Of a stretch of 64,000 nt of DNA, positions 5,265 to 64,000 are shown in pieces. The notes below the pieces were generated by a model. That model ran no database searches, had not been told where the DNA came from, and was given only the letters and a program-made list of their open reading frames with translations. Position 1 is the stretch's first letter; the number at the start of each line of letters is the position of its first letter. This DNA is from Enterobacter sp. JUb54 (GTDB lineage Bacteria > Pseudomonadota > Gammaproteobacteria > Enterobacterales > Enterobacteriaceae), in NCBI RefSeq assembly GCF_014298075.1, contig NZ_CP060418.1:5208001-5272000 (forward strand), read 5' to 3'. Position numbers and translations under genes: made by a program.

Positions 5265-5861
5265 ATGAAAACCAAATTTTGTATTATGGCAACGATGGTT
5301 GGTGCTCTGGTATCCGGCGTTGTAATGGCAAGTCCCGCACAGCCTGCACGTTCCGCAGTGACCGTCAATCCGGGCTCAAATAGCGGTACGCAAGGTACGG
5401 GTGGTCAGGTCGAGTTCACCGGCTCCATTACCGACACCTCCTGTAATATTGAGAGCACCAGCGCCAATCAGGTCGTCGACCTGGGCAAGTGGGCGAGCAG
5501 TTACTTTGCTGGCGCCGGCTCTGAAACCACCAAAACCGCCTTCCATATTAAAGTCAAAGATTGCCCGACCTCGGTCACCAAAGTCTCGGTGCTGTTCGAT
5601 GGCACCCGGGATACCAACAACAGCGACCTGCTGGCGGTGAACGGCGGCGCGCAGGGTGTAGCGATCAAACTGTACGAAGATGACAAATCCACGCCGATTA
5701 ATCTCGGCACCGTCTCTCGTGACCAGAACGTGGTTGCCGGGACCAGCGGCGCCAGCACCGGTACGGCCGATCTGGAATTCTTTGCCGATTATATCTCCAC
5801 CAGTGCGGTGACCGCCGGTGCGGCAAACGGAACCGCTAACTTCAATATGGTGTACAACTAA
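5265..5861 (+). CDS. Type 1-like major fimbrial subunit
   Basis: 198 residues. A Sec signal peptide ends near residue 22 (VVMA). The mature protein has the paired cysteines of the pilin fold (TSCNI near 59 and KDCP near 99) and the C-terminal beta-strand ending FNMVYN, the donor-strand motif of FimA-family subunits. An unusually long Gly/Ser/Asn stretch (about 30-48) precedes the first strand and may be a flexible N-terminal donor extension. It should be exported, capped by the chaperone encoded next, and polymerised through the usher. A hairpin terminator follows immediately, so this subunit can be made in excess of the assembly proteins. Confidence 0.9.
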   Translation: MKTKFCIMATMVGALVSGVVMASPAQPARSAVTVNPGSNSGTQGTGGQVEFTGSITDTSCNIESTSANQVVDLGKWASSYFAGAGSETTKTAFHIKVKDCPTSVTKVSVLFDGTRDTNNSDLLAVNGGAQGVAIKLYEDDKSTPINLGTVSRDQNVVAGTSGASTGTADLEFFADYISTSAVTAGAANGTANFNMVYN

Positions 5862-5961: not shown

Positions 5962-6627
5962 ATGAAATATACTCTGGCTGGCATCACCGCTGCTTTTATT
6001 CTGTTGGTCTCCACCACGGCTCAGGCCGGTATTGTGATGGGAGGGACGCGGGTTATTTATCCAGAAGGAAAGCGCGAAGCCTCACTGTCCGTGACGAATG
6101 CTGATACCCATTCACCTTATCTGGTGCAATCGTGGGTGGAAAACTATGCGGCAAAAGATACCAGCCCGGTGCCTTTTATCGTGACGCCGCCATTATTTCG
6201 CCTCGACCCTGAACAAGAAAACGTATTGCGAATTAATTTCATTGGCAAAACGCTGCCCCGCGATCGCGAATCGGTATTTTGGTTAAATGTGAAAAGTATT
6301 TCCCCGACGCAGCAAGGGGACAGCAATAAATTACAGGTCAATATTAAGTCGAAGTTTAAAATTTTCTATCGACCAAATGGCCTGGTGGGCGATCCGGCCA
6401 AAGCCTGGCAATCGTTGATTTTTAAAGTGATCGGTAACCGACTGGTGGCGCAGAACCCGACGCCATACTTTGTCTCCTTTTTTACGATTTCGGTGGGTGG
6501 CAAAGAGATCGAAGAACCGGGAATGATTGCCCCGTTAGCCAGCAAAACGTGGCCGGTTAGCGGTTCCGGAGTCGTGAAATGGCGCGCCATTAATGATTTT
6601 GGCGGGATTACGGATTACGCCCAGTAG
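5962..6627 (+). CDS. Periplasmic fimbrial chaperone (PapD/FimC family)
   Basis: About 221 residues with a signal peptide ending STTAQA. Family hallmarks are the N-terminal GGTRVIYPEG strand, the usual PPLFRLDPEQEN region and the RDRESVFWLNV segment, and NPTPYFVSF near residue 160. It binds pilin subunits in the periplasm by donor-strand complementation and delivers them to the usher. In-frame ATGs at 5950, 5959 and 5962 are all possible with no good Shine-Dalgarno. I chose 5962 because it gives the most normal signal peptide (MKYTLAG). It is the second gene of the operon. Confidence 0.9.
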   Translation: MKYTLAGITAAFILLVSTTAQAGIVMGGTRVIYPEGKREASLSVTNADTHSPYLVQSWVENYAAKDTSPVPFIVTPPLFRLDPEQENVLRINFIGKTLPRDRESVFWLNVKSISPTQQGDSNKLQVNIKSKFKIFYRPNGLVGDPAKAWQSLIFKVIGNRLVAQNPTPYFVSFFTISVGGKEIEEPGMIAPLASKTWPVSGSGVVKWRAINDFGGITDYAQ

Positions 6628-6662
6628 TCATTTTTGCGCTTAGCATCGCCAGGTCAGCTATT

Positions 6663-9200
6663 GTGAAAAAAAAATCCTTTGTTACCGTTCACGGCGATGC
6701 TGTGAAGGCGTCCCCGTGTGGGGATGCCCGGTTCATCGCCAGCGTGCCGCCGCTGCTGTGTTTGTTGTGCCACAGCGCGGTGGTTTGGGCCGATGATTAT
6801 TTCGACCCCGCGGCCCTCGAGTTTGCCAATCCGCAGCAAAAAATGGCGGACTTACACTATTTCGCCAAATCCGGCGGGCAGCAGCCCGGAACCTATCCGG
6901 TGAGTATCTGGGTCAACAATCAGGAAATCGGCCAGGGGTCGGTCACCTTTGTTGAAGACCACGGGGCCTTGCAACCGGTATTGACCCCGGCGCAGCTGGC
7001 AGATTTCGGGGTCAACGTCAGCGCTTTCTCATCCTTTAACACCTTGCATGAAGGTGAGACCTTCACCCGGATTGAACACTACATTCCGAATGCCAGCAGC
7101 CAGTTTGATTTTGCCACCCAGCGGCTGAATTTAAGCATTCCGCAGGCGGCGATGAACACCCAGAGTCGCGGCTATGTCGACCCGTCACGTTGGGATGAGG
7201 GCGTGCCGGCGGCGTTCGTCAACTATAACCTGACCGGGGCGCAGACCCGGCAGTCTGAAGAACAAAGCCGCTCCAGCTATCTGAATTTACGCAGCGGGGC
7301 TAATTTTGGCGCCTGGCGACTGCGCAATATCTCCTCAATGCAGTATGACCAGCATTACCGCTGGCATTCACAAAGTACCTATGTGCAGCGCGACGTGGCG
7401 CCGCTCAAAAGCCTGCTGCGCATGGGCGATACCTTCACGACCGGCGAAGTCTTCGATAGCGTGCCGTTTCGTGGCGTGCAACTGATGTCCGATGACGAAA
7501 TGTTGCCGGACAGCCAGCGCGGCTTTGCCCCGGTGATCCGCGGGATGGCGCACAGCAACGCCAAAGTGACGGTATTGCAGCATGGTTATGTGATCTACGA
7601 AACCTTCGTCTCGCCGGGGGCCTTTGCGATTAAAGATCTCTACCCGACGGCACAAAGCGGCGACCTTGAAGTGCAGGTGAAAGAGAGCGATGGCTCGGTG
7701 CGCTCGTTTACCCAACCCTATTCCGCGGTGCCGTTTATGCTGCGTGAAGGGCGGGCCAAATTCAGCCTCAGCGGCGGGCGCTATCACTCCGACCAGAACG
7801 ACGTTCGCTCACCGGAGTTTATTCAGGGCACGTTGTTCTATGGGCTGCCCGCGTCGGTCACCCTGTACGGCGGCACGCAGCTGGCGCAGGATTATCAGGC
7901 CTGGGCGATGGGTATCGGGCGCGGCTTTGGCGAACTGGGATCGCTCGGCGGCGACCTGACCTGGGCCAACACCGCCACGCCGTCGGATAAACATTTTGCC
8001 GGCCATTCGTTCCGCGTGCAGTACCAGAAAGATTTTGCCCGCACCGGAACCTCGTTCAGCCTCGCCAGCTATCGTTACTCTTCGAGCGGCTATTACGACT
8101 TCAGCGAAGCGAATGCGCTCGAAAGCCAGAGCCAGATGGTCGATAACAAACGCAGCCGGGAAGAGCTCTCGATTGCCCAGTCCTTTGGTACCGCCAGCAG
8201 TCTGGCGTTGTCCGCCTATTCGCAGGATTACTGGCACAGCAACAGCCGCGATGAAACGATACATCTCGGTTTCTATAGCGCCTGGAAAGGCATCTCCTGG
8301 GGCGTCGGCTACTACTACACCCAATCTTCCGACCGGGAGCGCGCGGACCGCTCCTGGTCATTAAACCTGAATATTCCACTCAGCGGCTGGCTGGCGGAAA
8401 GTTCGGTGAGCTACAGCACCACCTCCGACAACAATGGTCACTCCTCGCAGCAGGTTTCGATGTACGGCGTGATGCCGCACAGTCAGAACCTCTATTACTC
8501 GGTGCAGCAAGGCTACGCCAACGCCGGGCAGGGGAGTAACAGCAGCGCCGCGCTGGATTACCACGGCGGCTACGGCAGCGCCCAGCTGGGCTATCGCCAT
8601 GACAGTGAAAGCAATCAGCTGACCTGGGGCGCTTCCGGTTCTATCGTGGCGCACCCCCATGGCGTCACGTTGGGGCAACCCGTCGGCGACAGCTTTGCCA
8701 TCGTGCGGGCACCTGGCGCTGCGGATGTGGCGATTCAGAACGGCAGCAACGTCCATACCGACGGGCGTGGTTATGCGGTCGTGCCGACGTTAACGGTCTA
8801 TCGCAAAAACACCATCACCCTGGATACCGAATCGATGACCAACGACACCGATGTCGAATTACAGGGACAGACGGTGATCCCCGGCGGTGGCGCGGTGGTG
8901 ATGGCGAACTACCAGACGCACATCGGCAATCGCGTGCTGTTCACCCTGCGCAATCACGACGGGGCGATCCCGTTTGGCGCCAGCGTCCAGCTGCGCCAGG
9001 AGCAGGACGACACGGGCGCGGCGCCGCAGGGGATGGTCGCCGATAGCGGCCAGGTGTACCTCAGCGGTATCCCGGATGAAGGCACGCTTGAGGCGAGCTG
9101 GACCCAGGACAACCTCGCGCGGAAATGCACCCTGCATTTCCATCTTTCCAGTGAGCAACAGCAGAACAGCGTAAAAACCTTCAGCGGTTTTTGCCAGTGA
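6663..9200 (+). CDS. Outer-membrane fimbrial usher (FimD/PapC family)
   Basis: 845 residues starting with GTG at 6663. A signal sequence precedes DDYFDPAALEF, the typical mature usher N-terminus, which binds chaperone-subunit complexes. The middle region carries conserved usher segments (LRSGANFGAWRLR, MLPDSQRGFAPVIRG), forming the 24-strand barrel with plug. The C-terminal domains end in a cysteine pair (KC near 821 and FC near 844). It exports and polymerises the subunits. It lies 35 bases after the chaperone and 17 before the adhesin. Frame and length are intact. Confidence 0.93.
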   Translation: MKKKSFVTVHGDAVKASPCGDARFIASVPPLLCLLCHSAVVWADDYFDPAALEFANPQQKMADLHYFAKSGGQQPGTYPVSIWVNNQEIGQGSVTFVEDHGALQPVLTPAQLADFGVNVSAFSSFNTLHEGETFTRIEHYIPNASSQFDFATQRLNLSIPQAAMNTQSRGYVDPSRWDEGVPAAFVNYNLTGAQTRQSEEQSRSSYLNLRSGANFGAWRLRNISSMQYDQHYRWHSQSTYVQRDVAPLKSLLRMGDTFTTGEVFDSVPFRGVQLMSDDEMLPDSQRGFAPVIRGMAHSNAKVTVLQHGYVIYETFVSPGAFAIKDLYPTAQSGDLEVQVKESDGSVRSFTQPYSAVPFMLREGRAKFSLSGGRYHSDQNDVRSPEFIQGTLFYGLPASVTLYGGTQLAQDYQAWAMGIGRGFGELGSLGGDLTWANTATPSDKHFAGHSFRVQYQKDFARTGTSFSLASYRYSSSGYYDFSEANALESQSQMVDNKRSREELSIAQSFGTASSLALSAYSQDYWHSNSRDETIHLGFYSAWKGISWGVGYYYTQSSDRERADRSWSLNLNIPLSGWLAESSVSYSTTSDNNGHSSQQVSMYGVMPHSQNLYYSVQQGYANAGQGSNSSAALDYHGGYGSAQLGYRHDSESNQLTWGASGSIVAHPHGVTLGQPVGDSFAIVRAPGAADVAIQNGSNVHTDGRGYAVVPTLTVYRKNTITLDTESMTNDTDVELQGQTVIPGGGAVVMANYQTHIGNRVLFTLRNHDGAIPFGASVQLRQEQDDTGAAPQGMVADSGQVYLSGIPDEGTLEASWTQDNLARKCTLHFHLSSEQQQNSVKTFSGFCQ

Positions 9201-9217
9201 GTTGAGGAGTAGCAGCC

Positions 9218-10321
9218 ATGCATCGCGGCCTTCGAATAATGCAGTTTGTGTTCCTGCTGATGGCGGGGATTTACAGCCACTATGGCTGGAGTGAGAGCTG
9301 CAGCGGCAGCGTCGGGCAGATGACCATTAACGTGCCGAATATTCGCTATCTGCCCACTATGCCCGCCAACACGCAGATGACCAACGCCATGGCGGATAAC
9401 GGTAGCGGCATTCATTTTGTCTGCGATCTGCAACTGCCCACCGCGGTCTGGAAACAGATTGTCTATCGGCAAAACAGCACCGGGACGCCGCTGGTGATTA
9501 ACGGCCAGCATGTCTATCCCACGGCGCTCAGCGGTATCGGTTATTCGCTGGGATTCCAGTGCAGCGGCGGCCCGGTGCGCTACATCGACGGCAGCAATGC
9601 GCCAGCCGGCAGCGAGTCCATGACGGTCTGCGACAGTTCACAACTGTCGGCGTTGCTGAACCAACGCGAAACCGTGGTCAAAGCCTATATTACTTTTTAC
9701 AAAACCGGCGATGTGGCGCTGGTGAGCGGCAACCATGCCAGCGTCCCGGCGCAGCCGCAGGTCGGTAATTTAACCATCGAGAAGCAGGACGTCAGCGGCG
9801 GGAGCCACACCGCCAGCGCGCCGGTGAGTATCGACCTTGGCGCGCTCAACGTTGACATTGGCTCCAGCGGCAGCTGCCAGGTGACCCGCCCGACCATCAA
9901 CGTGAATCTGGGGACCGTGAATAAAGCGGCGTTCAAAGGCCAGACCACCACCGCCGGAACGGCGCAGACCTTCAGTATTCCGGTCTATTGCACCACCCCG
10001 ACCGATATCCGCATTGGCTTTTTTGGCGTCACCGCCGACCCCAGTCTCAACGATACCCTGGCGCTGGCAAAGGTTGACGGGGCTGCCAGCGGCGTCGGCA
10101 TCAAACTGAGCTACGGCAATAATCCGGCGCCGGCGCCCTCTGCCGGGACCGCGGTAAAAATCAATGAGTCCAGCAACCTGCCGGTGCTCAAACATATGCC
10201 TGCCAGCAATGCCGCCGGCGCGGAGAACATCAATTACACCGCCCAGTACGTGCAGACCAGCACTGTCGTCACCCCCGGACGGGCGAACGGCCAGGTCACT
10301 TTCGCGATCGAATATAACTAA
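9218..10321 (+). CDS. Two-domain fimbrial tip adhesin (FimH-like)
   Basis: 367 residues with a good ribosome-binding site (GAGGAG). After the signal peptide, residues about 25-185 form a lectin-like domain with disulfide cysteines, and residues about 205-367 form a pilin domain ending TFAIEYN, the pattern of FimH-type tip adhesins. It should cap the fimbria and determine the receptor, which cannot be predicted here. As the last gene of the operon it completes a subunit-chaperone-usher-adhesin set, so operon 1 appears functional. Confidence 0.88.
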   Translation: MHRGLRIMQFVFLLMAGIYSHYGWSESCSGSVGQMTINVPNIRYLPTMPANTQMTNAMADNGSGIHFVCDLQLPTAVWKQIVYRQNSTGTPLVINGQHVYPTALSGIGYSLGFQCSGGPVRYIDGSNAPAGSESMTVCDSSQLSALLNQRETVVKAYITFYKTGDVALVSGNHASVPAQPQVGNLTIEKQDVSGGSHTASAPVSIDLGALNVDIGSSGSCQVTRPTINVNLGTVNKAAFKGQTTTAGTAQTFSIPVYCTTPTDIRIGFFGVTADPSLNDTLALAKVDGAASGVGIKLSYGNNPAPAPSAGTAVKINESSNLPVLKHMPASNAAGAENINYTAQYVQTSTVVTPGRANGQVTFAIEYN

Positions 10322-11389
10322 ATAATGTCATGGTCAATCCAGTGTCAGTCCTTGCAGCTGAGGGGACATTGCTACAGACCAGTACGGAGGTGCACGCAGG
10401 CTTGAAAAAACTTCGGTCAGACGCTTTGTCGTAAATATCGAAAAAGAGTATGCAATAGTTCTATTTTTCTCAGGTAGGGATGGTTTTCTCGGACTTATTC
10501 TTAGGTAACCATTTCTGCGCATCTTATTTCGAAATGGCAATAATAAATATGATTGAATTGTCCAGCCAGTTATTCAGTCAGGAGACGGCCATCACTCTAA
10601 AAAGATGGACAGTACAAAGCAACTTCGCACCATTCGCACCCCAGCCGCACTTTGAATTTCCATCAGAAAATTTTCCAGCAGATTCTGTATCTGCAGCAAG
10701 AACTTTAGTCAGAACACATCCGTCACCTGCAACGGTATGAAGCTCTTTAACTTATCTTCGGTTGGTCAAATGAAGAAAAGCGCGTGTATGGTAGTTTCTG
10801 GCATCCACCATAAGACATCAGAGAATGTATCCCAATGACATGCCTGACCTTTTTTAAACTGGCTACAGTAGTACCCGGCCGACATAACTAATGTCAGCAG
10901 CTTGTAGTCCGTACCGAACTGAATATGCACTTTTGTCTACCGAACGATAATGTATAGCTGACATCGCCATCCCCGCTTTCACTGATATTTCAGGATGTTA
11001 TGTTGAATATGAAAACATCGTCCTGTGTTGATATAGCAGGCTATTTAAACGCGCACTTGCTCACTAATTTTTGATTCGTTTTCTTAAACGACGATGTTCA
11101 CCTAAACCTGGCTACGGAGATAAGGAAGAAGTCGCTGTTCTTCTAAAAAATGAAACGCTCAATGATATAATTTCTTTAAATATCAATTTGTTACTTTGTG
11201 TTGTCGGGTTTTTGTATCCGAGGCTACTGATTTTTTGTGAACTAATACACAAATATAAACAACTACTATTGCGTGGTTGACGTTGCCGGATTAACGTTTG
11301 AGCAGGTTGAACATAGTTGTACATAGACAAGTATACCTGTCATTGTTCTGAACTCTGAAACAATGATCGTCATTATGAGGCCAAGCGAT
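10322..11389. other. Unassigned region between fimbrial operon 1 and the PTS locus
   Basis: More than 1 kb without a supportable gene. Short frames (for example 10480-10740 +, 10334-10540 -) have no ribosome-binding site and no family resemblance I recognise. Base composition falls from GC-rich to AT-rich toward 11.3 kb, consistent with a junction of acquired DNA. The right end holds a probable operator for the PTS operon. Confidence 0.5.
11315..11338. promoter_or_regulatory. Probable GntR operator upstream of the PTS operon
   Basis: Contains TTGTACATA, 5 bases, then GTATAC. A closely related element (TTGTTCATA, 3 bases, GTATAC) lies upstream of the GntR/UTRA gene at 16359-16382. The shared pattern suggests one repressor controls both transcription units. 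Confidence 0.6.
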
Positions 11390-54441: not shown

Positions 54442-54474
54442 AAAAAAGCCCGCCAGGCTTACGCCGTGCGGGCT
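54442..54474 (-). terminator. Rho-independent terminator on the minus strand
   Basis: Stem AGCCCGC / GCGGGCT with an inner GGC-GTAA-GCC pairing and six T on the minus strand. No gene is left upstream of it in this orientation, so it may be a remnant of a tRNA, integrase or other gene at the element boundary. Confidence 0.75.
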
Positions 54475-55042
54475 CTCAGGACTTCATCGGATGACTCTGG
54501 TGATCACCGATGGAGAATTTTGGTGGGCTGGCGTCCCTGTGCTTTATATCTTAATGATATGATTTTTATTGTTATTTTTGTGCCTTGATTCATTAAGGGT
54601 TCAATAAAGGGTCCTAAGAAACGTCAGCACAGATTTTACTTATTCCAGAGCCAAAATCTTAGATACTACTAACGTTGAGGAGTTGAACTCACGAAACATA
54701 GCCTTTCTGTTCCGGAGGCTATTTCCCATATGCAAGATCTTACCTCTAACTTAGTCTTCTCAAAGTGCTAAACAAGAATTATAAAGGGGGATAGTACGGA
54801 ATTAAATCATAAATAAATTAACTAATTGATAATTAAGTATTTATTAAAAAATTTTACATAGGCCAAAAAAATAGCACTTTTTGCAAAAGACCTCCTAAGC
54901 CTATGCTGGCTTGCTTTCAAAACACCCTTCATAGATCTGACTAAAAAAGCACCATCTCTTGAACAATTCGTGCTTTTTGATAGTTGATCGCCATAAGCGA
55001 TCTGAGGATACTGCATCCATCAAAACAACAATGGAGAAATGT
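54475..55042. other. Left boundary region of the mobile element
   Basis: About 570 bases of increasing AT content leading to the AlpA gene. No gene supported. The attachment core should be within or near this segment but cannot be fixed without the right end. Confidence 0.4.
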
Positions 55043-55246
55043 ATGACAGAAAGAAAAAGATTTATCCGTATGCCTGAAGTGTTGGAAAGAACCGGATTTT
55101 GTAAAGCTTGGATTTATCGATTGATTAGTCGTGGTCAATTCCCTGCACCTATAAAACTAGGTGATCGAGCAATAAGGTTCGTAGAAAGCGAAGTCGATGA
55201 ATGGATCGACCAAATGATTTACGCATCTCGTAATAAAGCAGCATGA
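55043..55246 (+). CDS. AlpA-family DNA-binding regulator
   Basis: 67 residues from ATG 55043 (GGAG upstream). The MerR-like helix-turn-helix spans FIRMPEVLERTGFCKAWIYR, with the WIDQMI end typical of AlpA/Cox-type excisionase-regulators. AlpA proteins activate integrase expression in P4-like elements. It is the first gene at the left end of the island and fits with the P4-type integrase at the right end. Confidence 0.88.
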   Translation: MTERKRFIRMPEVLERTGFCKAWIYRLISRGQFPAPIKLGDRAIRFVESEVDEWIDQMIYASRNKAA

Positions 55247-55378
55247 TAATATTTTTATAAATGAAGTTAGGAGGCTATAAGTAATAAAAATATAGACCTG
55301 TGTTTAAAAATAACGATCCCTTTAATAATACATGAAAGTGTAGGGGGATATTTACTTAAAAAATAAATAAGGAAAAAA

Positions 55379-55612
55379 ATGAAAAAAGAAAATAAACATG
55401 CAAGTCAAACTTCAGCGGATTTAGCTGCATTACTGGAATATTCTCGTTTTACGAAGAGAACTCTAACAAAGCCTTCCAGCGAAGTTTTTGATTTATTTAC
55501 TGATAAATATTATATGGAAACAGTTTATGATGACATTATTAAAAAACAAAGAAGAGTATTGATAAAAGCCAACATAAGTACATTGATTTTGAAAAAGTTA
55601 GAATGGATATAA
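55379..55612 (+). CDS. Hypothetical small protein of the island
   Basis: 77 residues with AAGGA ribosome-binding site. Helical and basic, no signal peptide, no motif recognised. The AT-rich codon use matches the island. A strong palindromic hairpin follows about 110 bases downstream. Confidence 0.6.
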   Translation: MKKENKHASQTSADLAALLEYSRFTKRTLTKPSSEVFDLFTDKYYMETVYDDIIKKQRRVLIKANISTLILKKLEWI

Positions 55613-55723
55613 TGTGCATGCACACACAAGTTATTATGATTTCCTATATGTAAAATAAGGCAGCTCGATTTGATTTGTGGGGCGTTTAGGGCCATTTATG
55701 AAAAATGAGTTCATATCAAACTA

Positions 55724-55903
55724 AAGGTCAGATATATATCTGGCCTTCATTTATTTCAGAATCAATAATGATTGTGTAAAATATTTTTATATTTCTATTG
55801 ACTAATTAGATAGAAGATCTATAACAAGAAAAGATACAAAAAAAGCCAGATGTTAAATCTGACTTTTAAAGGACTTAAAAAGTTTTCGCTGACTTTTTTA
55901 AGT
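55724..55903. terminator. Three successive hairpins
   Basis: 55724-55747: stem AAGGTCAGATAT / ATATCTGGCCTT. 55841-55867: AGCCAGAT / ATCTGACT flanked by A and T runs, a bidirectional terminator. 55872-55903: perfect 12-base stem GACTTAAAAAGT / ACTTTTTAAGTC. The first two share the CAGAT core. They should block read-through into the downstream noncoding region. Confidence 0.7.
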
Positions 55904-56545
55904 CTTGTAATCAGTTATACGAGAACGTGATTACAAATATAAATAAAGTATTATCTAATCAACTTATATTTGTCAAATCTAAATCCCAACTTTTTACAAG
56001 TCTTTTAAATACCCTTTCCAGAATCCTTTTTAATCCTCAAAAGCAATAACGTTAAAACCTGTTGTATCAGGTATAAGAATACGAAGGTCCCTCAAGTGAT
56101 GGTGAATCTTATAGTTATTGCGACAGCGGTTAACCGGGAGCGATGCTGTCAGCCTGAATCGCCTTACCTAAAATTTATAAAGCGTTATAGCTTCTTTAGT
56201 AAAACGAGAAGTGCTTAAAAGATCATGGTAGGGTTTGCGCGGGTCGCGGGGGGGAGTATCAGATTGGAAACGGTCTAAATACTTTTTGAGTAATCAAAGC
56301 GCAATGAGCATTCTTTTTTCCTTTCTCTATCTCTTTAGCGATTTTCATTTTTCGCACGGGGGGAGGGGGGGGAATGCTCCAAGAAAAACTAAGTTTTACT
56401 AACGGAAAACTACTACGACTGAAAGTCGCCATCTAAAACCCGAAAACTTTAAAATTTAAATTTCTAGTACTACTGTACGAAAAATATTAAAATGTTATTT
56501 CTTATATGATAAAGTTAATTAAAGTTATTTTTTAAGGATTCAAAG
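55904..56545. other. Noncoding region with G-quadruplex motifs
   Basis: 640 bases, mostly AT-rich, with no gene. Two G-run clusters stand out: 56231-56254 (GGG, 7 bases, GGG, 4 bases, seven G) and 56358-56372 (six G, A, eight G). A GACAGC / GCTGTC inverted repeat around GGTTAACC lies near 56120. It could be a replication, transfer or regulatory segment. Confidence 0.5.
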
Positions 56546-57595
56546 ATGGCAGGAAAAAGACAGCATTTTATCCCTAGATTCTTACAGCGTGGATTTTCAT
56601 TAGAGAAAGAAGGAAAGTTTTTTTCTTGCTTATGTAAAAAAGAGTTTATAAAAGAAAATATAGTAATTGAAAACATTGGATTGGAAAATAAATTTTATAC
56701 TCTCGATGGCGATTCGTCAATTGATGACAAAATAACTGAAAAGGAAACTTATATCTATTCAAAAATCGTGCGCGAGTTAGTTAATGGTACATTTAACATG
56801 GATGATATAGGAAGTTTGTCTGACTTTGTCTTTCATATGGAAATCAGAACTAAAAATTTACGTTCTAACTTTACCAGTACTGCATCTCATCTAATAGACC
56901 AGATGCGAATAAGGCTTTTAAGCAAAGATGCTTTGTATAGATATTTAAATAAAAATGTCATTTCTGATCCATCAAAATTTGATAGGTTGATTAATGAACA
57001 GCTTAATGAGTTAAATGTTCCACAAGTTTTGTACCCACATATTAAGGGTGTTTTGATTAATAACGTTCATGCTTGGCTTCCCGACATAGCAAATAAACTT
57101 TCATTGCAACTTATTCCTTTATTTGGAAATATGGTTTTATCCGGTATTCCTGAGGCCGCTAAAAAAGGACATTTAAAAGGACTTGAGTTGAATGAAAGTT
57201 TGAAAATTGAAGAGTATAAGAAGCTAACTTATAAAGTAATAAATGTTGAGCAATCATTGATATTAGGGGATTGTCTCGTGATTTTTGAAGTTGATGGGGA
57301 TCGTAGATTTAAACCATTCCATGAAAAAGATGATGATTTAAAAGCAGTATATATGCCAATTAATTCACATTCTATATTGTATGGCGCAAAATATCTTGAT
57401 GACAACCCAAATATTGAAAATATAAACGATATAGTAGCACAATGTTCAACTGATTTTTTTATTTGCAAGGAGCCTATTCATAATATGAATGAACTTCAAA
57501 AAATCATTGGTGTTAATTCTTACCTTTTGTCTGATGAATTTATTGATGAAATGTTGAGTGATTTAATTGGTGATAATATTTTGTTAAGTCATTAA
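56546..57595 (+). CDS. DUF4238-family protein
   Basis: 349 residues. The N-terminal RQHFIPRFLQRGFS is the family signature (residues 5-18). A central helical region and a C-terminal segment with acidic residues follow. No membrane helix. The family's activity is unknown, but members are common in accessory islands near defence genes. Shine-Dalgarno AAGGA. The preceding hairpins and the following AT-rich gap suggest its own transcript. Confidence 0.82.
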   Translation: MAGKRQHFIPRFLQRGFSLEKEGKFFSCLCKKEFIKENIVIENIGLENKFYTLDGDSSIDDKITEKETYIYSKIVRELVNGTFNMDDIGSLSDFVFHMEIRTKNLRSNFTSTASHLIDQMRIRLLSKDALYRYLNKNVISDPSKFDRLINEQLNELNVPQVLYPHIKGVLINNVHAWLPDIANKLSLQLIPLFGNMVLSGIPEAAKKGHLKGLELNESLKIEEYKKLTYKVINVEQSLILGDCLVIFEVDGDRRFKPFHEKDDDLKAVYMPINSHSILYGAKYLDDNPNIENINDIVAQCSTDFFICKEPIHNMNELQKIIGVNSYLLSDEFIDEMLSDLIGDNILLSH

Positions 57596-57943
57596 AAAGT
57601 ATAAAATTGATGTTTAATTTATAATGTATCCATAGAGCCATATAAATATAAAAAGCGATATTTATCATAAAATTAAAAATACGTCATTCTAAATTTCACT
57701 TCAAAATAATGATCGATAAAAAAGATCAATATATAGATATTGATAGTTTATATCGATTGATATGGCTTTATCGATCGGCATTTAATTGTTTTTGACGATC
57801 GATTAATTAATTATGATGGTTTTAACCTATCGTGTGTTTTTTTTCGATCGGTACAAACGATGTGACGAACTATGAAAATAATTGAATTCTAAGATGTTTA
57901 CAGGCCAAGCGGTGGTCTGTGTCTCATCAGTGAAGGAAAAGGT
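57596..57943. other. AT-rich region with clustered GATC/CGATCG sites
   Basis: About 350 bases without a gene. Between 57711 and 57852 there are five GATC sites, several as CGATCG, and ATCGAT repeats in a very AT-rich stretch, resembling an origin-like or methylation-sensitive region. It precedes the lipoprotein gene. Confidence 0.5.
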
Positions 57944-58231
57944 ATGCGTAAACTTATGATGGTGGCAGGTTTGGTGACGCTATTGTCTGGTTGTGGTGAT
58001 GATGGTATCTATGGCGGCTACGTTAATCAGCAATACGGTGTCAGGCTTGATGTTCAGAAAGATGTGATCAAGTTCAGAAATGGCGTTTTTACTGTTAAAA
58101 GCTGGGATGAAAGCAAGAAACCCATCTATATAGCCAAAACGCAAAACAAAGATCTTGGCTCTTGGACTTTTAAAATCGAAAAGGTCAAAGATGGCGTCGT
58201 TTACCAAGGTGCGGTTTTTAAGAAGGATTAA
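57944..58231 (+). CDS. Small lipoprotein of the island
   Basis: 95 residues. The lipobox LLSGC ends at residue 17, and the mature part DDGIYGGYVNQQYGVRLDVQK is beta-rich. GAAGGAAAAGG upstream. It lies 3 bases before the zinc-ribbon protein gene, so they form a pair. Possibly a surface-exclusion or entry-blocking function by analogy with mobile-element lipoproteins, but no family match is recognised. Confidence 0.75.
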   Translation: MRKLMMVAGLVTLLSGCGDDGIYGGYVNQQYGVRLDVQKDVIKFRNGVFTVKSWDESKKPIYIAKTQNKDLGSWTFKIEKVKDGVVYQGAVFKKD

Positions 58232-58234
58232 GTG

Positions 58235-58510
58235 ATGGAACAAAATATTATTCAGTGTCCTTTTTGTTATAAAGAAAGTCAAAAAGGTGTTCATGTATGC
58301 ACCGGATGTCAGGCATCCGTGCTATATGGAACATATCCCGGTTGGTATGCGGCGGTGATCATCCTGTTAGCTTTTGGTCTGTCAGTGCTGATTGGAATGT
58401 CTACTGGCATGGCAGGAGCTACAATTAGCTTACCAATAATAGCTATTGTCGGTTTTGTCGCGGGTAAGGCAATTTTCTCAGACAACATTATCTTCAGAAG
58501 AAGAATGTAA
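58235..58510 (+). CDS. Zinc-ribbon membrane protein
   Basis: 91 residues from ATG 58235 (GAAGGA upstream; a GTG three bases earlier is possible). The N-terminal CPFC and CTGC pairs form a zinc ribbon (about 8-27), then two hydrophobic segments (about 38-58 and 62-82). It is coupled to the lipoprotein gene. Directly downstream are the phage-origin-like hairpins. Function unknown. Confidence 0.75.
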   Translation: MEQNIIQCPFCYKESQKGVHVCTGCQASVLYGTYPGWYAAVIILLAFGLSVLIGMSTGMAGATISLPIIAIVGFVAGKAIFSDNIIFRRRM

Positions 58511-58527
58511 ATCAGTCTCGTTTTTCA

Positions 58528-58641
58528 GGGTGATGCTCCACTACGTGAACCATCACCCATATAAATTTTATTTCCTCCCCCTATGTCATCAAGCACTAAA
58601 TCGGAACCCGTAAACGGGACCCCACGATTTAGCACTTGACG
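58528..58641. other. Filamentous-phage (f1/M13)-like origin hairpins
   Basis: 58528-58558 is a perfect hairpin GGGTGATG / CATCACCC whose right part CTACGTGAACCATCACCC is identical to the f1/M13 intergenic region as I remember it. 58596-58632 is a nested hairpin, outer arms CTAAATCG / CGATTTAG and inner CCCG-TAAA-CGGG, preceded by AAGCA and followed by CTTGACG, matching the f1 complementary-strand origin hairpin with a few differences. Order and orientation agree with the complement of the f1 viral strand, though the spacer between them and the gene-II nick site are not conserved. Confidence 0.8.
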
Positions 58642-58832
58642 ATTTGTCCCCGCAGCTACGCATAGCTACCAGAAAGACAATATATTATTTACCCTATCTT
58701 TTATTTGCTTTTTATTCGTCGTGCAGTGTATTTATTATGTAGCCGCTATTGACAAGTATTTTATATCGGTTATTTATTTAAATATAAGTGTAGTTCAGCT
58801 TTTTTTGTTTTTCGGAAACTGAGGCAAGGTGT

Positions 58833-58943
58833 AATAGCGTATCCGCTATTTACCCAATCCTTCGGATTGCTCTATCTCGCTTTGCTCGTAGGGTTGAAAA
58901 AGATCTACCCTTCCGCCTATTCCCCTTGTCAAAGGGGAGGCGG
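58833..58943. other. Candidate transfer origin (oriT)
   Basis: Three inverted repeats directly upstream of the mobilization genes: 58833-58850 (AATAGCG-TATC-CGCTATT), 58855-58869 (CAATCC-TTC-GGATTG) and 58913-58943 (CCGCCT and CCCC pairing with GGGG and AGGCGG). MOB relaxases nick next to such repeats. The exact nick cannot be placed. Confidence 0.55.
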
Positions 58944-58979
58944 TAAACCATACAGTTTAATATTATAGGAGTATTTAAA

Positions 58980-59351
58980 ATGAATGATGATTTAGGTTTT
59001 ATAAATAACATAGATGGGAAAATTTTATTTGAGTATTATCAATATTTAACTAATGCCATACTGGGTGATGATGACACAAAAAAATAATTTGTGAAATATG
59101 AACATTATGACTTGGATTATTTAAGGTATTATCTTGAAGCGAGTATCTATTTTTTAGGTGAGGCAAGAGATGAAGCAAATAGAGATGTTGAAATAAAAGA
59201 TTTAAACGAAGCAGTGGAGATAATAAATAAATTATCAAATAGGGCTAAGGTTGCTTTAGCTGAACATATTATATTGTGGTTTGAAGATATATCATTGGTA
59301 GGTTCTTATACACTATTTAGATTTTTAGGCAGGGAGAAAAGAATATTATGA
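58980..59351 (+). pseudogene. Small mobilization-operon gene interrupted by a stop
   Basis: ATG 58980 has a good AGGAG site. The frame MNDDLGFINN... runs 35 codons to TAA (59085-59087) and continues in the same frame from a GTG at 59091 for 86 more residues (MKYEHYDLDYLRYYLEA) to a stop overlapping the next ATG (ATGA). One nonsense change would explain it; alternatively these are two coupled small proteins. No family recognised. Confidence 0.5.
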
Positions 59352-59524
59352 TGATTATGTCTGTAGCAATGGTAATACTTTGTATTATGTTGGGAGGTTT
59401 TATGATCCGTAGCTGTACTCGAAAAACAAACTCTTCAAGCGAAGCAAAGCAAGCAATATCAGAAGTTAGAAAAATGATAGATAAAAAAGCATTGATTAAA
59501 TACAAAAGGAATAATAGAACATGA
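59348..59524 (+). CDS. Small membrane protein of the mobilization operon
   Basis: 58 residues. A hydrophobic N-terminal helix (about 3-18) is followed by a basic cytoplasmic part (RSCTRKTN, KKALIKYKRNN). It overlaps the previous and next genes by ATGA, typical of a compact mobilization operon. Possibly a relaxosome-anchoring accessory protein; no family recognised. Confidence 0.55.
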   Translation: MMIMSVAMVILCIMLGGFMIRSCTRKTNSSSEAKQAISEVRKMIDKKALIKYKRNNRT

Positions 59525-59810
59525 ATGTAGAAAACTTAATGAATAGTATGACTATAGAATATAAGCTCGAAATACTGGCAAGGTTTTTTATTACATAGAA
59601 CAAAACAAAGATATACCATTTAATGAAATCAATAGTGATGAGCGAGATTTTTGTTATTTTGTAGCCAATAGATACATTACAGAAAATAAAGCTGATGAGC
59701 TTATTGAAGCATTACTTATTGAAAATGATAACGACTACATAAGAGCAACAGATGATTACATTATCCAGAGGAATAAAGAATGCGAACAGACAGAAAAAGA
59801 GGGCGTATAG
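59521..59810 (+). pseudogene. Frameshifted small mobilization-operon gene
   Basis: From ATG 59521, MNVENLMNSMTIEYKLEIL runs into a stop after 25 codons. If the six-T run at 59584-59589 had seven T, the frame would continue YYIEQNKDIPFNEINSD and on to a stop at 59808-59810 overlapping the MobC start, giving about 96 acidic residues. It is a homopolymer indel, a sequencing error, or a slippage site. Confidence 0.5.
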
Positions 59811-60154
59811 AATTAAATCACGAAGAACGCAGAGATATATCTATACAGTTTAGAGTAAACAAAGCAGAGTTTGAATATTTAAAAGAACTTGTTGAGGCAT
59901 CCGGTCTTGAAAGAGGCCATTACATTAGGAAAGAGATTTTAAACTCTGAACCTATTGTTAAAAGAAAAATGCCTGAAATAAATCAAAAAACATACATGCA
60001 GCTTTCAGCAGTTGCCAATAATATAAACCAAGCAACAAAGAAACTAAATGGTAATGAGTATTTTGATAAAAATGAGGTTGATAAACTCAACTTTAATATA
60101 AAACAGGTTGGTAGAAGGATAATAGAGATAAATAAAGACTTGGGGTATATATGA
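59780..60154 (+). CDS. MobC-like relaxosome accessory protein
   Basis: 124 residues. A ribbon-helix-helix N-terminal half (RDISIQFRVNKAEFEYLKEL) and the MobC block QLSAVANNINQATKKLN. MobC proteins help the relaxase melt and nick oriT. It overlaps the relaxase gene by 4 bases (ATGA) and the frameshifted gene before it. Confidence 0.85.
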   Translation: MRTDRKRGRIELNHEERRDISIQFRVNKAEFEYLKELVEASGLERGHYIRKEILNSEPIVKRKMPEINQKTYMQLSAVANNINQATKKLNGNEYFDKNEVDKLNFNIKQVGRRIIEINKDLGYI

Positions 60155-61623
60155 AAGGGAATGTAGCTAAAACAGGGAGATCATTTAAAAATAGGGTTGA
60201 TTATATATTAAAAGATGATCACAGTTTTATTTGTAGCAATATGTCAGCAGATAAAAATAACGTTAGTGAGTTAACTGATGAGTTTAAAACTGTAAGCGGC
60301 TTTAGACAAAATATAAAAAAACCAGTCTTTCATGCATTTTTATCTCTTCCAAAAGATGAAAAATTAACAGATGAAAAATGGCAGGAGATAGCAAAAGACT
60401 ATTTGAAAGAAATGAATGTTGATATAGAAAAAAATCAATATATTTGTGTGCGTCATAAAGATACAGATCAAGACCATATTCATATTGTAGCAAACAGGAT
60501 CGGCCTTGATGGTTCTGTATGGCATGGTCAGCACTCAGCATTTAACACGATAGCAGCTTGTGAACGTTTAGAAGTAAAGCACAGCTTAACCATTACTAAA
60601 GGCTTACAGGGGCAAAAATCAGACGTATCAGCACCAACCAAGAACGAGATCGAGCTGGCATTGAGGACAGGTGAGAAACCAGCCCGTTTAGTGCTTCAAG
60701 CCTCTCTACAAGCCGCTATGGTAGGAAAACCAGACTTAGGGACGTTCGTAGAACGTCTGCAGGCCGTAGGCATTGAACCTCAGTTCAATGTTGCCAGCAC
60801 TGGCAACGTGGCGGGTTGTTCTTTCAGTGTGGGAGATGTGGCATTTAAAGGCTCACAGTTGGGTAAAAAATTTAGTTGGAACACTATAAAAAACAAGGTG
60901 AAATATGACAAAAATAGAGATGATGAACTCGTTAGAAGATTCGCAGCAAGAAAAACAGATGACGAAAATAGTATTAGACGATCATTTGTTGAACCAAATA
61001 TCAATGACGATAGAACCATTATCAGAAACGATGATGATATTATCGGAGTCAGTCAGCACAGCATTAAACCAGACACAACAGACACTAATAAGAGTGAACA
61101 ACTCATTAGAGGCAACAACAATCGCTTTAAACTCAGCGAAAAATACAATAGACCAACAAGCCCAAAAGTTAGAAGAACAACACAAAAAGCTGCACAAGTA
61201 CTCAACAGAGTTAAAAAACAATACCATAAAGAACCAATCAAAACTTATACTAAAAGTAGCTTCAATAGTAGGGGTTCTAAACTTATCAGCGGTTCTATTG
61301 GTAGGATACTTGATCATGCAGAAACAGCAAACGCAGCCACAAATAAATTTAGACTCAAGAGCGGTAGCCGTTTTAATAGTAGAGCAACTAAGCTCGAAGA
61401 GATGAGATATAGGCTGGGAATAATAAAACCAGTTATTAAGTCTAAAAATAAAGAGAAGACCATGAAAGAAGAAATAAAGAAAAAACCATCATATATGGTT
61501 GATTATGAGAATATATTTAAATACAAGATAAAGCACGATTCAAAAGGAAAACAACCCAAGGGGCAATTAACACAAATTGAAGGAGGCAGGATTTTAAAAT
61601 CTAAAGCCTTTAAACTGCGATGA
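60151..61623 (+). CDS. MOB-family relaxase (ColE1/MobA superfamily)
   Basis: 490 residues. Motif I tyrosine is probably Tyr18 in NRVDYIL. Motif III is HKDTDQDHIHIVANRI (His102, His109, His111), the metal-binding three-histidine site. The first 300 residues form the nickase; the C-terminal part is basic, low in complexity and overlaps another gene. It nicks the element's oriT and leads the single strand into a recipient via a helper conjugative system. No coupling protein or type IV secretion genes occur in the window. Confidence 0.92.
   Translation: MKGNVAKTGRSFKNRVDYILKDDHSFICSNMSADKNNVSELTDEFKTVSGFRQNIKKPVFHAFLSLPKDEKLTDEKWQEIAKDYLKEMNVDIEKNQYICVRHKDTDQDHIHIVANRIGLDGSVWHGQHSAFNTIAACERLEVKHSLTITKGLQGQKSDVSAPTKNEIELALRTGEKPARLVLQASLQAAMVGKPDLGTFVERLQAVGIEPQFNVASTGNVAGCSFSVGDVAFKGSQLGKKFSWNTIKNKVKYDKNRDDELVRRFAARKTDDENSIRRSFVEPNINDDRTIIRNDDDIIGVSQHSIKPDTTDTNKSEQLIRGNNNRFKLSEKYNRPTSPKVRRTTQKAAQVLNRVKKQYHKEPIKTYTKSSFNSRGSKLISGSIGRILDHAETANAATNKFRLKSGSRFNSRATKLEEMRYRLGIIKPVIKSKNKEKTMKEEIKKKPSYMVDYENIFKYKIKHDSKGKQPKGQLTQIEGGRILKSKAFKLR
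60905..61405 (+). CDS. MbeB-like mobilization protein nested in the relaxase gene
   Basis: 166 residues in a different frame wholly inside the relaxase gene. It has a Shine-Dalgarno (AAGGTG) 7 bases upstream of ATG. The protein has a long coiled-coil middle (about 60-105) and a C-terminal membrane helix (LILKVASIVGVLNLSAVLLV region). This repeats the ColE1 arrangement, where mbeB and mbeD lie inside mbeA. Its sequence character is protein-like, not that of a random shadow frame. Confidence 0.75.
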   Translation: MTKIEMMNSLEDSQQEKQMTKIVLDDHLLNQISMTIEPLSETMMILSESVSTALNQTQQTLIRVNNSLEATTIALNSAKNTIDQQAQKLEEQHKKLHKYSTELKNNTIKNQSKLILKVASIVGVLNLSAVLLVGYLIMQKQQTQPQINLDSRAVAVLIVEQLSSKR

Positions 61624-61742
61624 AAATGATTAATATATTATGAACTATAGGTGATTAATGATAAGTATGTGGTTTTAGCATAATATTAGACTGAGTTCAT
61701 TTTGGACGATGATCAAATCGCCCAAAGGTTTTAGCTATAGTA

Positions 61743-62861
61743 TCAAGTTTTTTCTTCATATTCAGGAATAGATACAAGTCCTTGTTCTGTGCGAATAAAC
61801 CTGTGCCGCATTGGTTTAAATGGTGATTGCTTTGCTACTTCTAATGATAAATTTGTGAGCAAACCAAAAGCTTTATGTGCATATTCTAAGCAATCATATT
61901 TACCACGATCTTGAAGAGAAATTCGCGATATTTCTTTAAAGTTTTCTATATACTTATTAAAATCACTTTTCTTACATCGTTCACTATAAAGCTTTTCGGG
62001 ATTAGCGGGTAACGGGAAACGAACTGCAGGAAGTTCTTTACCTTCAGGCATAGCGATAGGCTCATGAATTGCATATAAATTATGGCTTGCAATATTTATT
62101 GGTGCAGAGTGCATTACTAGATCTCTATAATTTCCCAACTCAAACAGCCATCCACCAATGCTCATTTCCTTTTTCAGATAAGTCTCTATTTCTGAATGAT
62201 CTTTCTTTGAGTTTAAAAATCTTAGCAGGCCTCCTGCAGTTGTAATTTCTTTTCCTTGTTGCTTACTGATCCCTCCATTTGAGAAGTTGTATACATACTC
62301 GCAAAGATTATCTCGAAGGATTCCAGAATCAAATAAAAATGAATGGAATTCTTGATAAACTAAATCGGTATATCCATCCTGAAATCGTTGCCCGCTTTTG
62401 AAACTTTCTTTTAAAACTAATGCATTTAATTGTTGTTGATAAGAAACAGCTAAGTTTTTTAACCGGTTGTTAATTGTGTTCAGTTGAAATCGGATTCTAT
62501 TTGAAAGATCATAGCTAATTCCATTTTTGTTATGAAATGATGACAGAGCTATTCCACCCCATGTCTGTATGGCATCCCAATTAGACCAAATATTCTTTTG
62601 GTTAACATAGCCTCGAAACTCTCTTGGGGACTCACCTATATATTCACTTTCATTAGAAGTAAACTCAACGCCGATAATTTTTAAGTTGATTTTATTAACT
62701 GCATAAAAGAGTTTACCGTATTGATCTATTTTTATTTGTGTTATTTTTCCATCTTTAGTTTTTGGCCAAATTAAAACTTCATCACTTAATGGTTCAATTG
62801 TAGCAATAGGACCGCCTGATAAAAATACAGTTCTTCCGCAGAATGGCCAATTATCTTTCAT
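61743..62861 (-). CDS. Candidate HEPN-domain protein, island cargo
   Basis: 372 residues with no signal peptide. Residues 240-260 include NYRDLVMHSAPI, where Arg246 and His251 fit the R-phi-x3-H signature of HEPN RNases. Around it lie helices compatible with that fold. The N-terminal 130 residues look beta-rich. It is transcribed away from the mobilization genes next to the integrase, a common cargo position for anti-phage or toxin genes. The assignment rests on one short motif and needs structure prediction. Confidence 0.5.
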   Translation of the reverse strand: MKDNWPFCGRTVFLSGGPIATIEPLSDEVLIWPKTKDGKITQIKIDQYGKLFYAVNKINLKIIGVEFTSNESEYIGESPREFRGYVNQKNIWSNWDAIQTWGGIALSSFHNKNGISYDLSNRIRFQLNTINNRLKNLAVSYQQQLNALVLKESFKSGQRFQDGYTDLVYQEFHSFLFDSGILRDNLCEYVYNFSNGGISKQQGKEITTAGGLLRFLNSKKDHSEIETYLKKEMSIGGWLFELGNYRDLVMHSAPINIASHNLYAIHEPIAMPEGKELPAVRFPLPANPEKLYSERCKKSDFNKYIENFKEISRISLQDRGKYDCLEYAHKAFGLLTNLSLEVAKQSPFKPMRHRFIRTEQGLVSIPEYEEKT

Positions 62862-62997
62862 GCTTACCTCTGTGGTTTGTTCAATGTCCTGTATGGTTAA
62901 TAAAATGAGAATCTAAATAATATTGTGCAGCAACATAAATATGTAGTCAACTTATCACTGCCATATCGTATAATGTAAAAAAGTAATGATTCATACG

Positions 62998-64000
62998 TTA
63001 TGCAGCAATAGCATTGAGTTTCTTGGCCTGAACGTAATCTCCCCACCACTGCATCAGTTCTGTTCTTTCAGCAAGATACTCTGAACGATTGTAGGCAGCT
63101 ATGATTTCGTTGTTCTTAGTATGAGCTAAGGCTGATTCAAGCACTTCTGTTCTAAATCTACCACTTTCTTCAGCAGCCGTTCTTGCTATAGAACGCATTC
63201 CGTGGGCGACCAGCTCCCCACCGAATCCCATACGGATGATTGCAGCATTAGCTGTTTGCTCATGCATGTGGTTAAGCGGGGCTTTGATACTTGGGAAAAC
63301 CCACTCTCTATGACCACTGATTGGTCTGATTAACTCAAGGATGCGCATTGCCTCTTTACTTAGCGGAATCTTGTGAGGGCGCTTCATCTTCATAAACTCA
63401 CCGGGGATATTCCAGAACCGATTATCTTCGTCTATATCACTCCAACGAGCACGGACTGCTTCTCCCGGACGAACCCACGTAAGGAGCTGCCACTCAATTA
63501 GAAGACGTGTTTCGAGCCGTATGGAAGCGTTAGATATGGCGAGCATGAACCGGGGGAGTTCATTCGGTGGTAAAGCTGGCATGTTTTGCTTCTTGGGTTT
63601 ACTGAAACGCTGACCGAGGTTATCAGCAGGATTAAACTCAATAAGTTCTTCTGTCGCAGCCCAACGGAAAATTTCATTTAGACGTGAAATGATGCGGCGC
63701 AGGGTTTCCAATACGCCTCGTTGTTCTATGGGGTCAAGGTGTTGTTTTAAGAGCTTGGGACGGATCTCTTTGATAGGAACGTTGCCTAAACCGGGGAAGA
63801 CATTTCGTTCAAGGCTCCGCCAGATGTCTTCTGCGTGGTCTGGAGAGATACCAGAGGTCTTAACCTTCTCATCTAACCATTTCCTAGCAACCGCCTGCAG
63901 CGTGTGCTCAGTAGCATCCTTAAGGGCGTTGGCTTTATCGTTGTTGTGAATCTGCGGATCGATATTATTTGCAAGCAACGACAAGTATTCATCACGTAAA
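62998..64000 (-). CDS. P4-type tyrosine integrase, partial (N-terminus beyond window)
   Basis: 328 or more residues; the frame stays open through the right edge, with LRDEY preceding the first in-window TTG. Catalytic residues: Arg in WVRPGEAVRARWSD, the HGMRS (His-x-x-Arg) motif, and the tyrosine in AAYNRSEYLAER, with the final QWWGDYV typical of P4 integrases. It recombines the element into its site, usually a tRNA gene. The missing part is the N-terminal DUF4102-like arm-binding domain. Confidence 0.92.
   Translation of the reverse strand, partial: LRDEYLSLLANNIDPQIHNNDKANALKDATEHTLQAVARKWLDEKVKTSGISPDHAEDIWRSLERNVFPGLGNVPIKEIRPKLLKQHLDPIEQRGVLETLRRIISRLNEIFRWAATEELIEFNPADNLGQRFSKPKKQNMPALPPNELPRFMLAISNASIRLETRLLIEWQLLTWVRPGEAVRARWSDIDEDNRFWNIPGEFMKMKRPHKIPLSKEAMRILELIRPISGHREWVFPSIKAPLNHMHEQTANAAIIRMGFGGELVAHGMRSIARTAAEESGRFRTEVLESALAHTKNNEIIAAYNRSEYLAERTELMQWWGDYVQAKKLNAIAA

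What the first reader, a model, noticed from the sequence alone, without database searches (positions are those of the whole stretch)
58528..58641. f1/M13-like replication-origin hairpins inside a mobilizable island
Seen: a hairpin containing CTACGTGAACCATCACCC and, about 40 bases later, a nested hairpin with CTAAATCG / CGATTTAG arms around CCCG-TAAA-CGGG, bordered by AAGCA and CTTGACG. From memory these match the filamentous phage f1 intergenic region: plus-origin hairpin D and the complementary-strand (RNA-polymerase-primed) origin. Divergence in the spacer and compensated stem changes argue against vector contamination. Inference: the element may use this to convert transferred single strands to duplex, or may be replicated or packaged by a helper inovirus. 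The strand equivalent to the phage viral strand is the minus strand here, a testable constraint on which strand relaxase transfers.
Basis: partly seen in the sequence, partly recalled or inferred. Interest (0 to 1): 0.85.

Follow-up and report, generated by a model that had tools for sequence, protein, structure and literature searches.

The report
Phage-type second-strand origin on island
A mobile DNA island in a gut-type bacterium carries the DNA signal that filamentous phages such as M13 use to start copying single-stranded DNA into double-stranded DNA, placed on the strand that the island most likely sends to other cells, which suggests a way for such islands to become double-stranded after transfer.

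Summary
Window 58516-58645 (minus strand) is a homologue of the filamentous-phage complementary-strand (minus) origin: 78% identical to f1/M13 5625-5744 (E 4e-16), 77% to PEar1, 74% to IKe. No plus origin, packaging signal, Zot or Phage_CRI gene was found. The block sits in an integrative mobilizable element (AlpA, MobC, relaxase, integrase, ssrA) between a membrane-protein gene and an oriT-like region, on the strand opposite the relaxase gene in 11 of 11 loci compared. The oriT-like geometry makes this the transferred strand. A second IME type with another relaxase family follows the same rule, and its plasmid cousin is a rolling-circle plasmid with the block. Stems are kept by compensatory changes. 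Best reading: an RNA-polymerase-primed single-strand origin that converts the transferred (or rolling-circle) strand to duplex. Fold and strand are computed; priming is inferred. Such origins in integrative elements are known (ICEBs1); the inovirus type in Gram-negative IMEs looks like a new variant. Some relatives lack the block.

The parts
58516..58645 (-). Inovirus-type complementary-strand (minus) origin, whole unit; model R1 match 125.7 bits (the window's copy is one of the 17 sequences in the model)
58586..58642 (-). First (5') hairpin of the origin on the phage-viral-equivalent strand: 18-bp stem with nested 4-bp stem
58528..58558 (-).
58813..58854 (-). oriT candidate: inverted repeat 58828-58854 followed on the minus strand by a nearly invariant stretch (CACCTTGCCTYAGTTTCCG in the 9 islands and 5 plasmids aligned)
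   Evidence: cleavage itself not shown
58232..58510 (+). mem92: 92-aa membrane protein with N-terminal Cys pairs; ends 5 nt before the origin unit; relatives in 34 of 392 genomes of the host's family
57944..58231 (+). lipo95: 95-aa putative lipoprotein; with mem92 present in all 11 type-1 loci compared that have the block and a relaxase
59780..60154 (+). MobC / NikA-like relaxosome protein (PF21983)
60151..61623 (+). MobA/VirD2-type relaxase (PF03432)
62998..64000 (-). Tyrosine integrase (427 aa in the flanking sequence, runs past the window end), next to ssrA/tmRNA just outside the window
54959..55246 (+). AlpA-type regulator/excisionase (PF05930)
61743..62861 (-). Cargo gene, 372 aa, no Pfam, PHROGs, PADLOC or NCBIfam match
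56546..57595 (+). DUF4238 protein, cargo

Best explanation
It is a single-strand (complementary-strand) origin of the filamentous-phage type carried by an integrative mobilizable element. After excision the relaxase nicks oriT (candidate 58813-58854) and the minus strand leaves (or is displaced in a rolling-circle round). The origin lies about 170 nt behind the nick on that strand, so it is among the first DNA to enter the recipient. As single strand it folds into the two hairpins, host RNA polymerase makes a short primer there, and DNA polymerase III extends it around the recircularised strand, giving the duplex needed for integration at ssrA. Shown here: homology, fold, compensated stems, position, strand relation to the relaxase gene. 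Inferred from f1/M13, Frpo and sso biology: nick position, primer synthesis, timing, need for transfer.
For: Homology to the annotated minus origin of IKe and to f1/M13. Across 27 sequences 35 pairs are 94.5% paired, 18 pairs have changes on both sides; none of 500 shuffles reaches any of the five measures and no slid control comes near. Within 11 type-1 copies alone 96.9% of cells pair, 5 pairs and 12 cells changed on both sides; shuffles reach the cell count 0/500, the pair count 15/500, the count of pair types 174/500. The block is opposite the relaxase strand in 11 of 11 loci compared (window, L002-L005, L024-L027, L050, L057) and in 16 of 16 E. coli genomes that are listed in both (4 of these 16 are L002-L005; several are near-identical). 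The oriT-like repeat has its nearly invariant flank on the 3' side of the minus strand. Second IME type L035/L036: PF03389 relaxase on the minus strand, oriT-like CATTCGAAGAATGTATAAGTGCGC on the + strand, block on +. Its plasmid cousin L068 has the same mob module and block plus a rolling-circle Rep_1. RCR plasmids L018 (Rep_1) and L007 (32% to the Rep of L068) carry the block in the direction of Rep. The Rep of L068 has no significant match in the 12-kb stretches held of L035 and L036, so there the origin seems to have outlived the Rep. [quoted passage not shown]
Against: No experiment. The nick site is inferred from recalled oriT geometry. The same mob module exists without this block: 5 of 5 plasmids inspected (L043-L047) and islands L049, L055, L056, L058 lack it. 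The 5 plasmids, L049 and L058 have a Replicase relative instead (PF03090 tested in L044, L058), but L055 and L056 show neither, and L025 has both. Orientation within one family is inherited, so the strand rule amounts to about two independent observations. Plasmid L019 has block and mobC on the same strand, against the rule; its oriT was not found.
Confidence: 0.78

Rival explanations
1. Relic: the island descends from a plasmid that used the block for its own replication, and the block now has no function.
For: The type-2 plasmid cousin is a rolling-circle plasmid with the block; type-1 relatives without the block exist.
Against: Stem pairs are kept with compensatory changes among type-1 island copies themselves (the pair count alone is reached by 15 of 500 shuffles), in hosts named as E. 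coli, Brenneria salicis, Samsonia erythrinae and Enterobacter asburiae.
Confidence: 0.1
2. Frpo-like single-stranded promoter whose main job is early gene expression from the incoming strand, not priming.
For: Frpo drives leading-region genes of F from single strand (PMC9849209 passages) and Frpo relatives are common in leading regions (PMC11541004 passages).
Against: By analogy with f1 (recalled) the transcript would run from the block towards oriT, away from mem92 and lipo95; only about 170 nt of non-coding DNA lie there before the presumed nick. The Frpo sequence itself was not compared here.
Confidence: 0.06
3. Signal for replication or packaging by a helper inovirus (satellite use).
For: The homology is to an inovirus intergenic region; prophages with Zot-like genes carry the block elsewhere (L006 annotated; L034 and L062 by eye).
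Against: No match above shuffles for plus origin or packaging region of f1 and IKe; no Zot or Phage_CRI match in the host genome. The PF05144 search rang in 1 of 14 control genomes and over its cut-off in none, so its sensitivity is unproven here.
Confidence: 0.03
4. Transcription terminator of the lipo95-mem92 operon that only looks like an origin.
For: It starts 5 nt after the mem92 stop codon; in L065 and L066 mem92 is followed by other sequence with a simple hairpin by eye and no block.
Against: A terminator does not need both phage hairpins, their order and their conserved letters; in type-2 elements the block follows unrelated genes.
Confidence: 0.03

Closest known systems
Minus-strand (complementary-strand) origin of filamentous phages f1/M13, IKe, PEar1
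   Same: Sequence (74-78%), two-hairpin fold, order of the hairpins
   Different: Stands alone: no plus origin or packaging signal found in the island; chromosomal island instead of phage
sso of rolling-circle plasmids with Rep_1 (L018, L007, L068)
   Same: Same block, in L068 together with the same mob module as IME type 2
   Different: No rolling-circle Rep matched in the window; initiation would come from the relaxase. That the block is the sso of these plasmids is itself inferred.
sso1 of ICEBs1 (PMC4595007; passages read)
   Same: Complementary-strand origin in an integrative element, used after transfer and for the circular form
   Different: Conjugative element of Bacillus; the text has no occurrence of 'M13'. 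Here a non-conjugative enterobacterial IME and an inovirus-type origin
Frpo/ssi of plasmid F (PMC9849209, PMC11541004; passages read)
   Same: Folded single-stranded DNA that recruits RNA polymerase, in the leading region
   Different: Direct sequence comparison not made; here no leading gene lies downstream of the expected primer
ROD21-like (EARL) islands (PMC6035254; passages read)
   Same: Enterobacterial integrase islands with a relaxase; mem92 relatives occur beside MobA/MobL relaxases
   Different: No block in two mem92 islands with MobA/MobL relaxases that were checked (L065, L066); whether these two are EARL islands was not tested

Membership tests
Inovirus minus-strand origin | Sequence homology over both hairpins | tested here: met
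Inovirus minus-strand origin | Two hairpins kept by selection on pairing | tested here: met
Inovirus minus-strand origin | RNA polymerase primes complementary-strand synthesis on it | not testable with these tools
   needs biochemistry
Complete filamentous-phage origin (plus origin plus packaging signal) | Viral-strand origin with gene II nick region | tested here: not met
   f1 plus probe 29 v. shuffles up to 39; IKe 24 v. up to 30; region after the minus origin of PEar1 27 v. up to 33
Complete filamentous-phage origin (plus origin plus packaging signal) | Packaging signal | tested here: not met
   20 v. up to 28 (f1), 20 v. up to 27 (IKe)
sso/ssi of a transferred element | Lies on the transferred strand in working orientation | tested here: inconclusive
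   agrees in both IME types, but the strand is inferred from oriT-like geometry (recalled rule) and no nick is mapped; L019 disagrees
sso/ssi of a transferred element | Needed for duplex conversion in the recipient | not testable with these tools
   needs mating assay
Integrative mobilizable element | Integrase, relaxase, relaxosome protein, target-site neighbour | tested here: met
Integrative mobilizable element | Defined ends (direct repeats) | tested here: inconclusive
   only an 18-nt imperfect repeat near 54442
Frpo single-stranded promoter | Sequence similarity to Frpo, -35/-10 in the fold | not tested
   no Frpo sequence was fetched

The most novel reading that the evidence does not exclude
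One inovirus-type complementary-strand origin is a portable second-strand module shared by filamentous phages, rolling-circle plasmids, the repA side of large plasmids and at least two IME types with different relaxase families; these IMEs are mobilizable plasmids that gave up Rep for an integrase but kept or gained the single-strand origin, and they use relaxase-started rolling-circle rounds plus RNA-polymerase priming to survive as circles and to establish in recipients.
Probability: 0.35. Interest if true: 0.7.

Novelty: new variant of a known kind. Interest (0 to 1): 0.55.

Why it matters
How mobilizable islands of Gram-negative bacteria turn the incoming single strand into duplex is, as far as I know, rarely addressed; a named 130-base element on a predicted strand makes it directly testable. 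It links phage, plasmid and island replication through one shared part, gives a strand prediction for oriT, and supplies a covariance model that found diverged copies (type 2, inovirus prophages) of the same origin.

Tried and rejected
Vector contamination: rejected (single chromosomal contig, conserved neighbours in relatives, 22-26% divergence from the phages). Plus origin and packaging signal: not found. Resident inovirus helper: no Zot or Phage_CRI match. Strict either/or between block and Replicase: rejected, L025 has both and L055, L056 neither. Constant tie of mem92 to the block: rejected, L065 and L066 have mem92 without it. Cargo as known defence genes: no PADLOC match in 6 proteins. 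Island left end: not settled. Literature: the listings showed no paper on an inovirus-type origin in islands; beyond the listings I saw passages only, of PMC10121019, PMC11541004, PMC4595007, PMC7948647, PMC6035254, PMC5714925 and PMC9849209; subscription papers are mostly not held. Weak R1 matches in other families (L063, L064, L067) were looked at and left; further weak matches (G445, G481, G626, G739) were not fetched.

Full report
OBSERVATION. As single-stranded DNA the minus strand of 58515-58660 folds into two hairpins at -26.5 kcal/mol, against -13.3 +/- 2.7 in 200 shuffles, none as stable; the f1 counterpart gives -27.3 against -16.1 +/- 2.6. A blastn search with 58500-58680 against 50,697 phage records matched 43 records, all at 60-80% identity: PEar1 77% (E 8e-18), f1/M13 78% (E 4e-16, phage positions 5625-5744), IKe 74% (E 8e-12). 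The lambda and Listeria entries in that tally were not looked into. In a local alignment against 54501-64000 the f1 minus origin scores 105 and that of IKe 92; 60 shuffled islands reached at most 30 and 32.

WHICH ORIGIN. The IKe record marks the matched segment (locus 901-1022) with two minus-strand-origin stem loops (913-965 and 990-1018); its viral-strand origin stems begin at 1134, beyond the match. So both hairpins in the window are minus (complementary-strand) origin. Probes from the plus-origin and packaging regions of f1 and IKe and from the region after the minus origin of PEar1 score 20-29 in the island, within the shuffled range (maxima 27-39). The host genome has no Zot (PF05707) or Phage_CRI (PF05144) match; the Zot search rang in 5 of 14 controls, the other in 1 and not over its cut-off, so that silence is weaker evidence. 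The hairpin letters B, C, D are recalled.

SETTING. Around the block lie AlpA, a DUF4238 gene, lipo95, mem92, the block, a non-coding stretch, small ORFs, a NikA-like MobC, a MobA/VirD2-type relaxase, a 372-aa cargo gene and a tyrosine integrase. The integrase is complete in the flanking sequence and lies about 110 nt from ssrA, which is outside the window. In E. coli the tmRNA locus is reported as a hotspot that can hold IMEs (PMC10121019 passage). The left end is not settled. Among the ten island ORFs scanned with Pfam none is a transfer-channel gene.

RELATIVES OF THE SAME MODULE. In 392 genomes of the host's family, model R1 (built from 17 aligned sequences) finds the block in 17, and a relaxase at 63% or more identity occurs in 7. 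Of these 7, 5 have the block in the same place; one contig ends 519 nt upstream of the relaxase (G290) and one relaxase is decayed, with no block (G318). In E. coli the relaxase is found in 24 of 5426 genomes, 20 records chromosomal and 4 plasmid. Sixteen of the 20 are among the 40 rows (of 524 records) shown, each with the block on the opposite strand to the relaxase. The other 4 I fetched: one has a block of 64 bits beside an IS1 copy (L057), three have none (L055, L056, L058). A scan of one genome for each of 84,980 species gave 7 loci: four are contigs already seen (Brenneria salicis, B. alni, Samsonia, Symbiopectobacterium), one is a distant Burkholderiaceae match; of the two new ones Pectobacterium brasiliense L049 lacks the block and Enterobacter asburiae L050 has it. 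In the 11 loci compared that have both block and relaxase, the order is lipo95, mem92, block, MobC, relaxase. L032 (G054) has mem92, block and a Replicase relative but no relaxase in the 12 kb held.

PLASMID COUSINS. The non-coding stretch 58665-58985 matches 29 plasmid records, all 80-90% identical. The five that I read carry the same MobC and relaxase (76-79%; in L043 a part at 87%) and a Replicase relative, but no block. So the mob module recombines and the block is not a fixed part of it. The pattern 'Replicase or block' holds for most but not all: L025 has both, L055 and L056 have neither by these searches.

STRAND. In the alignment of 9 islands and 5 plasmids the stretch next to an inverted repeat (window 58828-58854) is nearly invariant on one side. 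In oriTs of this broad class the nick lies 3' of the repeat on the cut strand (recalled). Read that way the cut strand is the minus strand, leaving towards the block, and the block lies about 170 nt from the nick. That is the strand on which the block equals the phage viral strand. This type shares AlpA and ssrA-integrase relatives with the window's island, so only its relaxase and transfer region are independent. Twelve plasmids share that oriT region over 80% or more at 91.7-96.5% identity. The one I read (L068) has the same mob module (pieces of 80-84% DNA identity), the block (42.7 bits) and a rolling-circle Rep_1. That Rep is not found in the 12-kb stretches of L035 and L036 (one match, E 0.68). 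Two other rolling-circle plasmids, L018 and L007, carry the block in the direction of Rep. Against the rule: plasmid L019 has block and MobC on one strand; no oriT could be placed there.

SELECTION ON THE FOLD. With the structure of the window's copy imposed on 27 sequences, 94.5% of cells pair, 18 of 35 pairs have changes on both sides (54 cells), no shuffle of 500 reaches any of the five measures, and slid controls give 30-47% pairing and 5-7 such pairs. Within 11 type-1 copies 96.9% pair and 5 pairs (12 cells) changed on both sides; 15 of 500 shuffles reach the pair count, 174 the count of pair types, none the other three measures. Related sequences can exceed shuffles without structure, and a structure taken from one of the sequences favours itself over slid versions, so neither control is complete.

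LARGE PLASMIDS. The block or part of it matches 1350 of 72,556 plasmid records, 809 of them over 80% or more of the query; some are vector-like or short partial matches. In three of those read it lies about 500-600 nt downstream of repA (L009, L015, L016), in others elsewhere (L008, L014). There it more likely serves vegetative replication.

MECHANISM AND VERDICT. The best-supported reading is a complementary-strand origin that works on the single strand sent by the island's relaxase. Homology, fold and strand relation are computed; the nick, priming by RNA polymerase, timing and benefit are inferred from f1/M13 and from Frpo and sso literature (passages read: PMC9849209, PMC11541004, PMC4595007, PMC5714925, PMC7948647). 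Sso elements in integrative elements are known from ICEBs1. I saw no report of the inovirus type in IMEs in the listings, which do not cover most subscription journals. Hence: new variant of a known kind, interest 0.55.

Noticed in passing
window 58981-59351 and 59524-59780: Two of the small ORFs between block and MobC look interrupted in this copy compared with relatives (for example the 124-aa ORF of L049 7823-8197); described only.
   Followed up: no
window 58232-58510; mem92-like membrane proteins lie near three relaxase types (type 1, MobA/MobL, and a distant group of PF03432-like relaxases where mem92 is about 31-51% identical), which suggests a general mobilization role.
   Followed up: partly
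L017 (Raoultella plasmid) 5996-10478: Three copies of the origin block with equal scores between IS26 copies, near an integron with blaIMP-26.
   Followed up: no
L009, L015, L016: In IncI/IncFII-like plasmids the block sits about 500-600 bases downstream of repA, possibly as a primer site near oriR.
   Followed up: no
L045 5001-8567: The mob and Replicase module of the small plasmids lies inside a 34.7-kb plasmid with blaKPC-2.
   Followed up: no
L063, L064, L067: Weak model matches in other families of the order: chromosomal sequences whose second hairpin resembles the phage hairpin.
   Followed up: no
L025, L035, L036: IMEs with different relaxase families share related ssrA-type integrases (97%, 88%, 85% to the window's), showing exchange of modules.
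   Followed up: partly
L060 (Klebsiella plasmid, 2772 bp): A tiny circular record with a mem92-like stretch and an integrase but no block.
   Followed up: no
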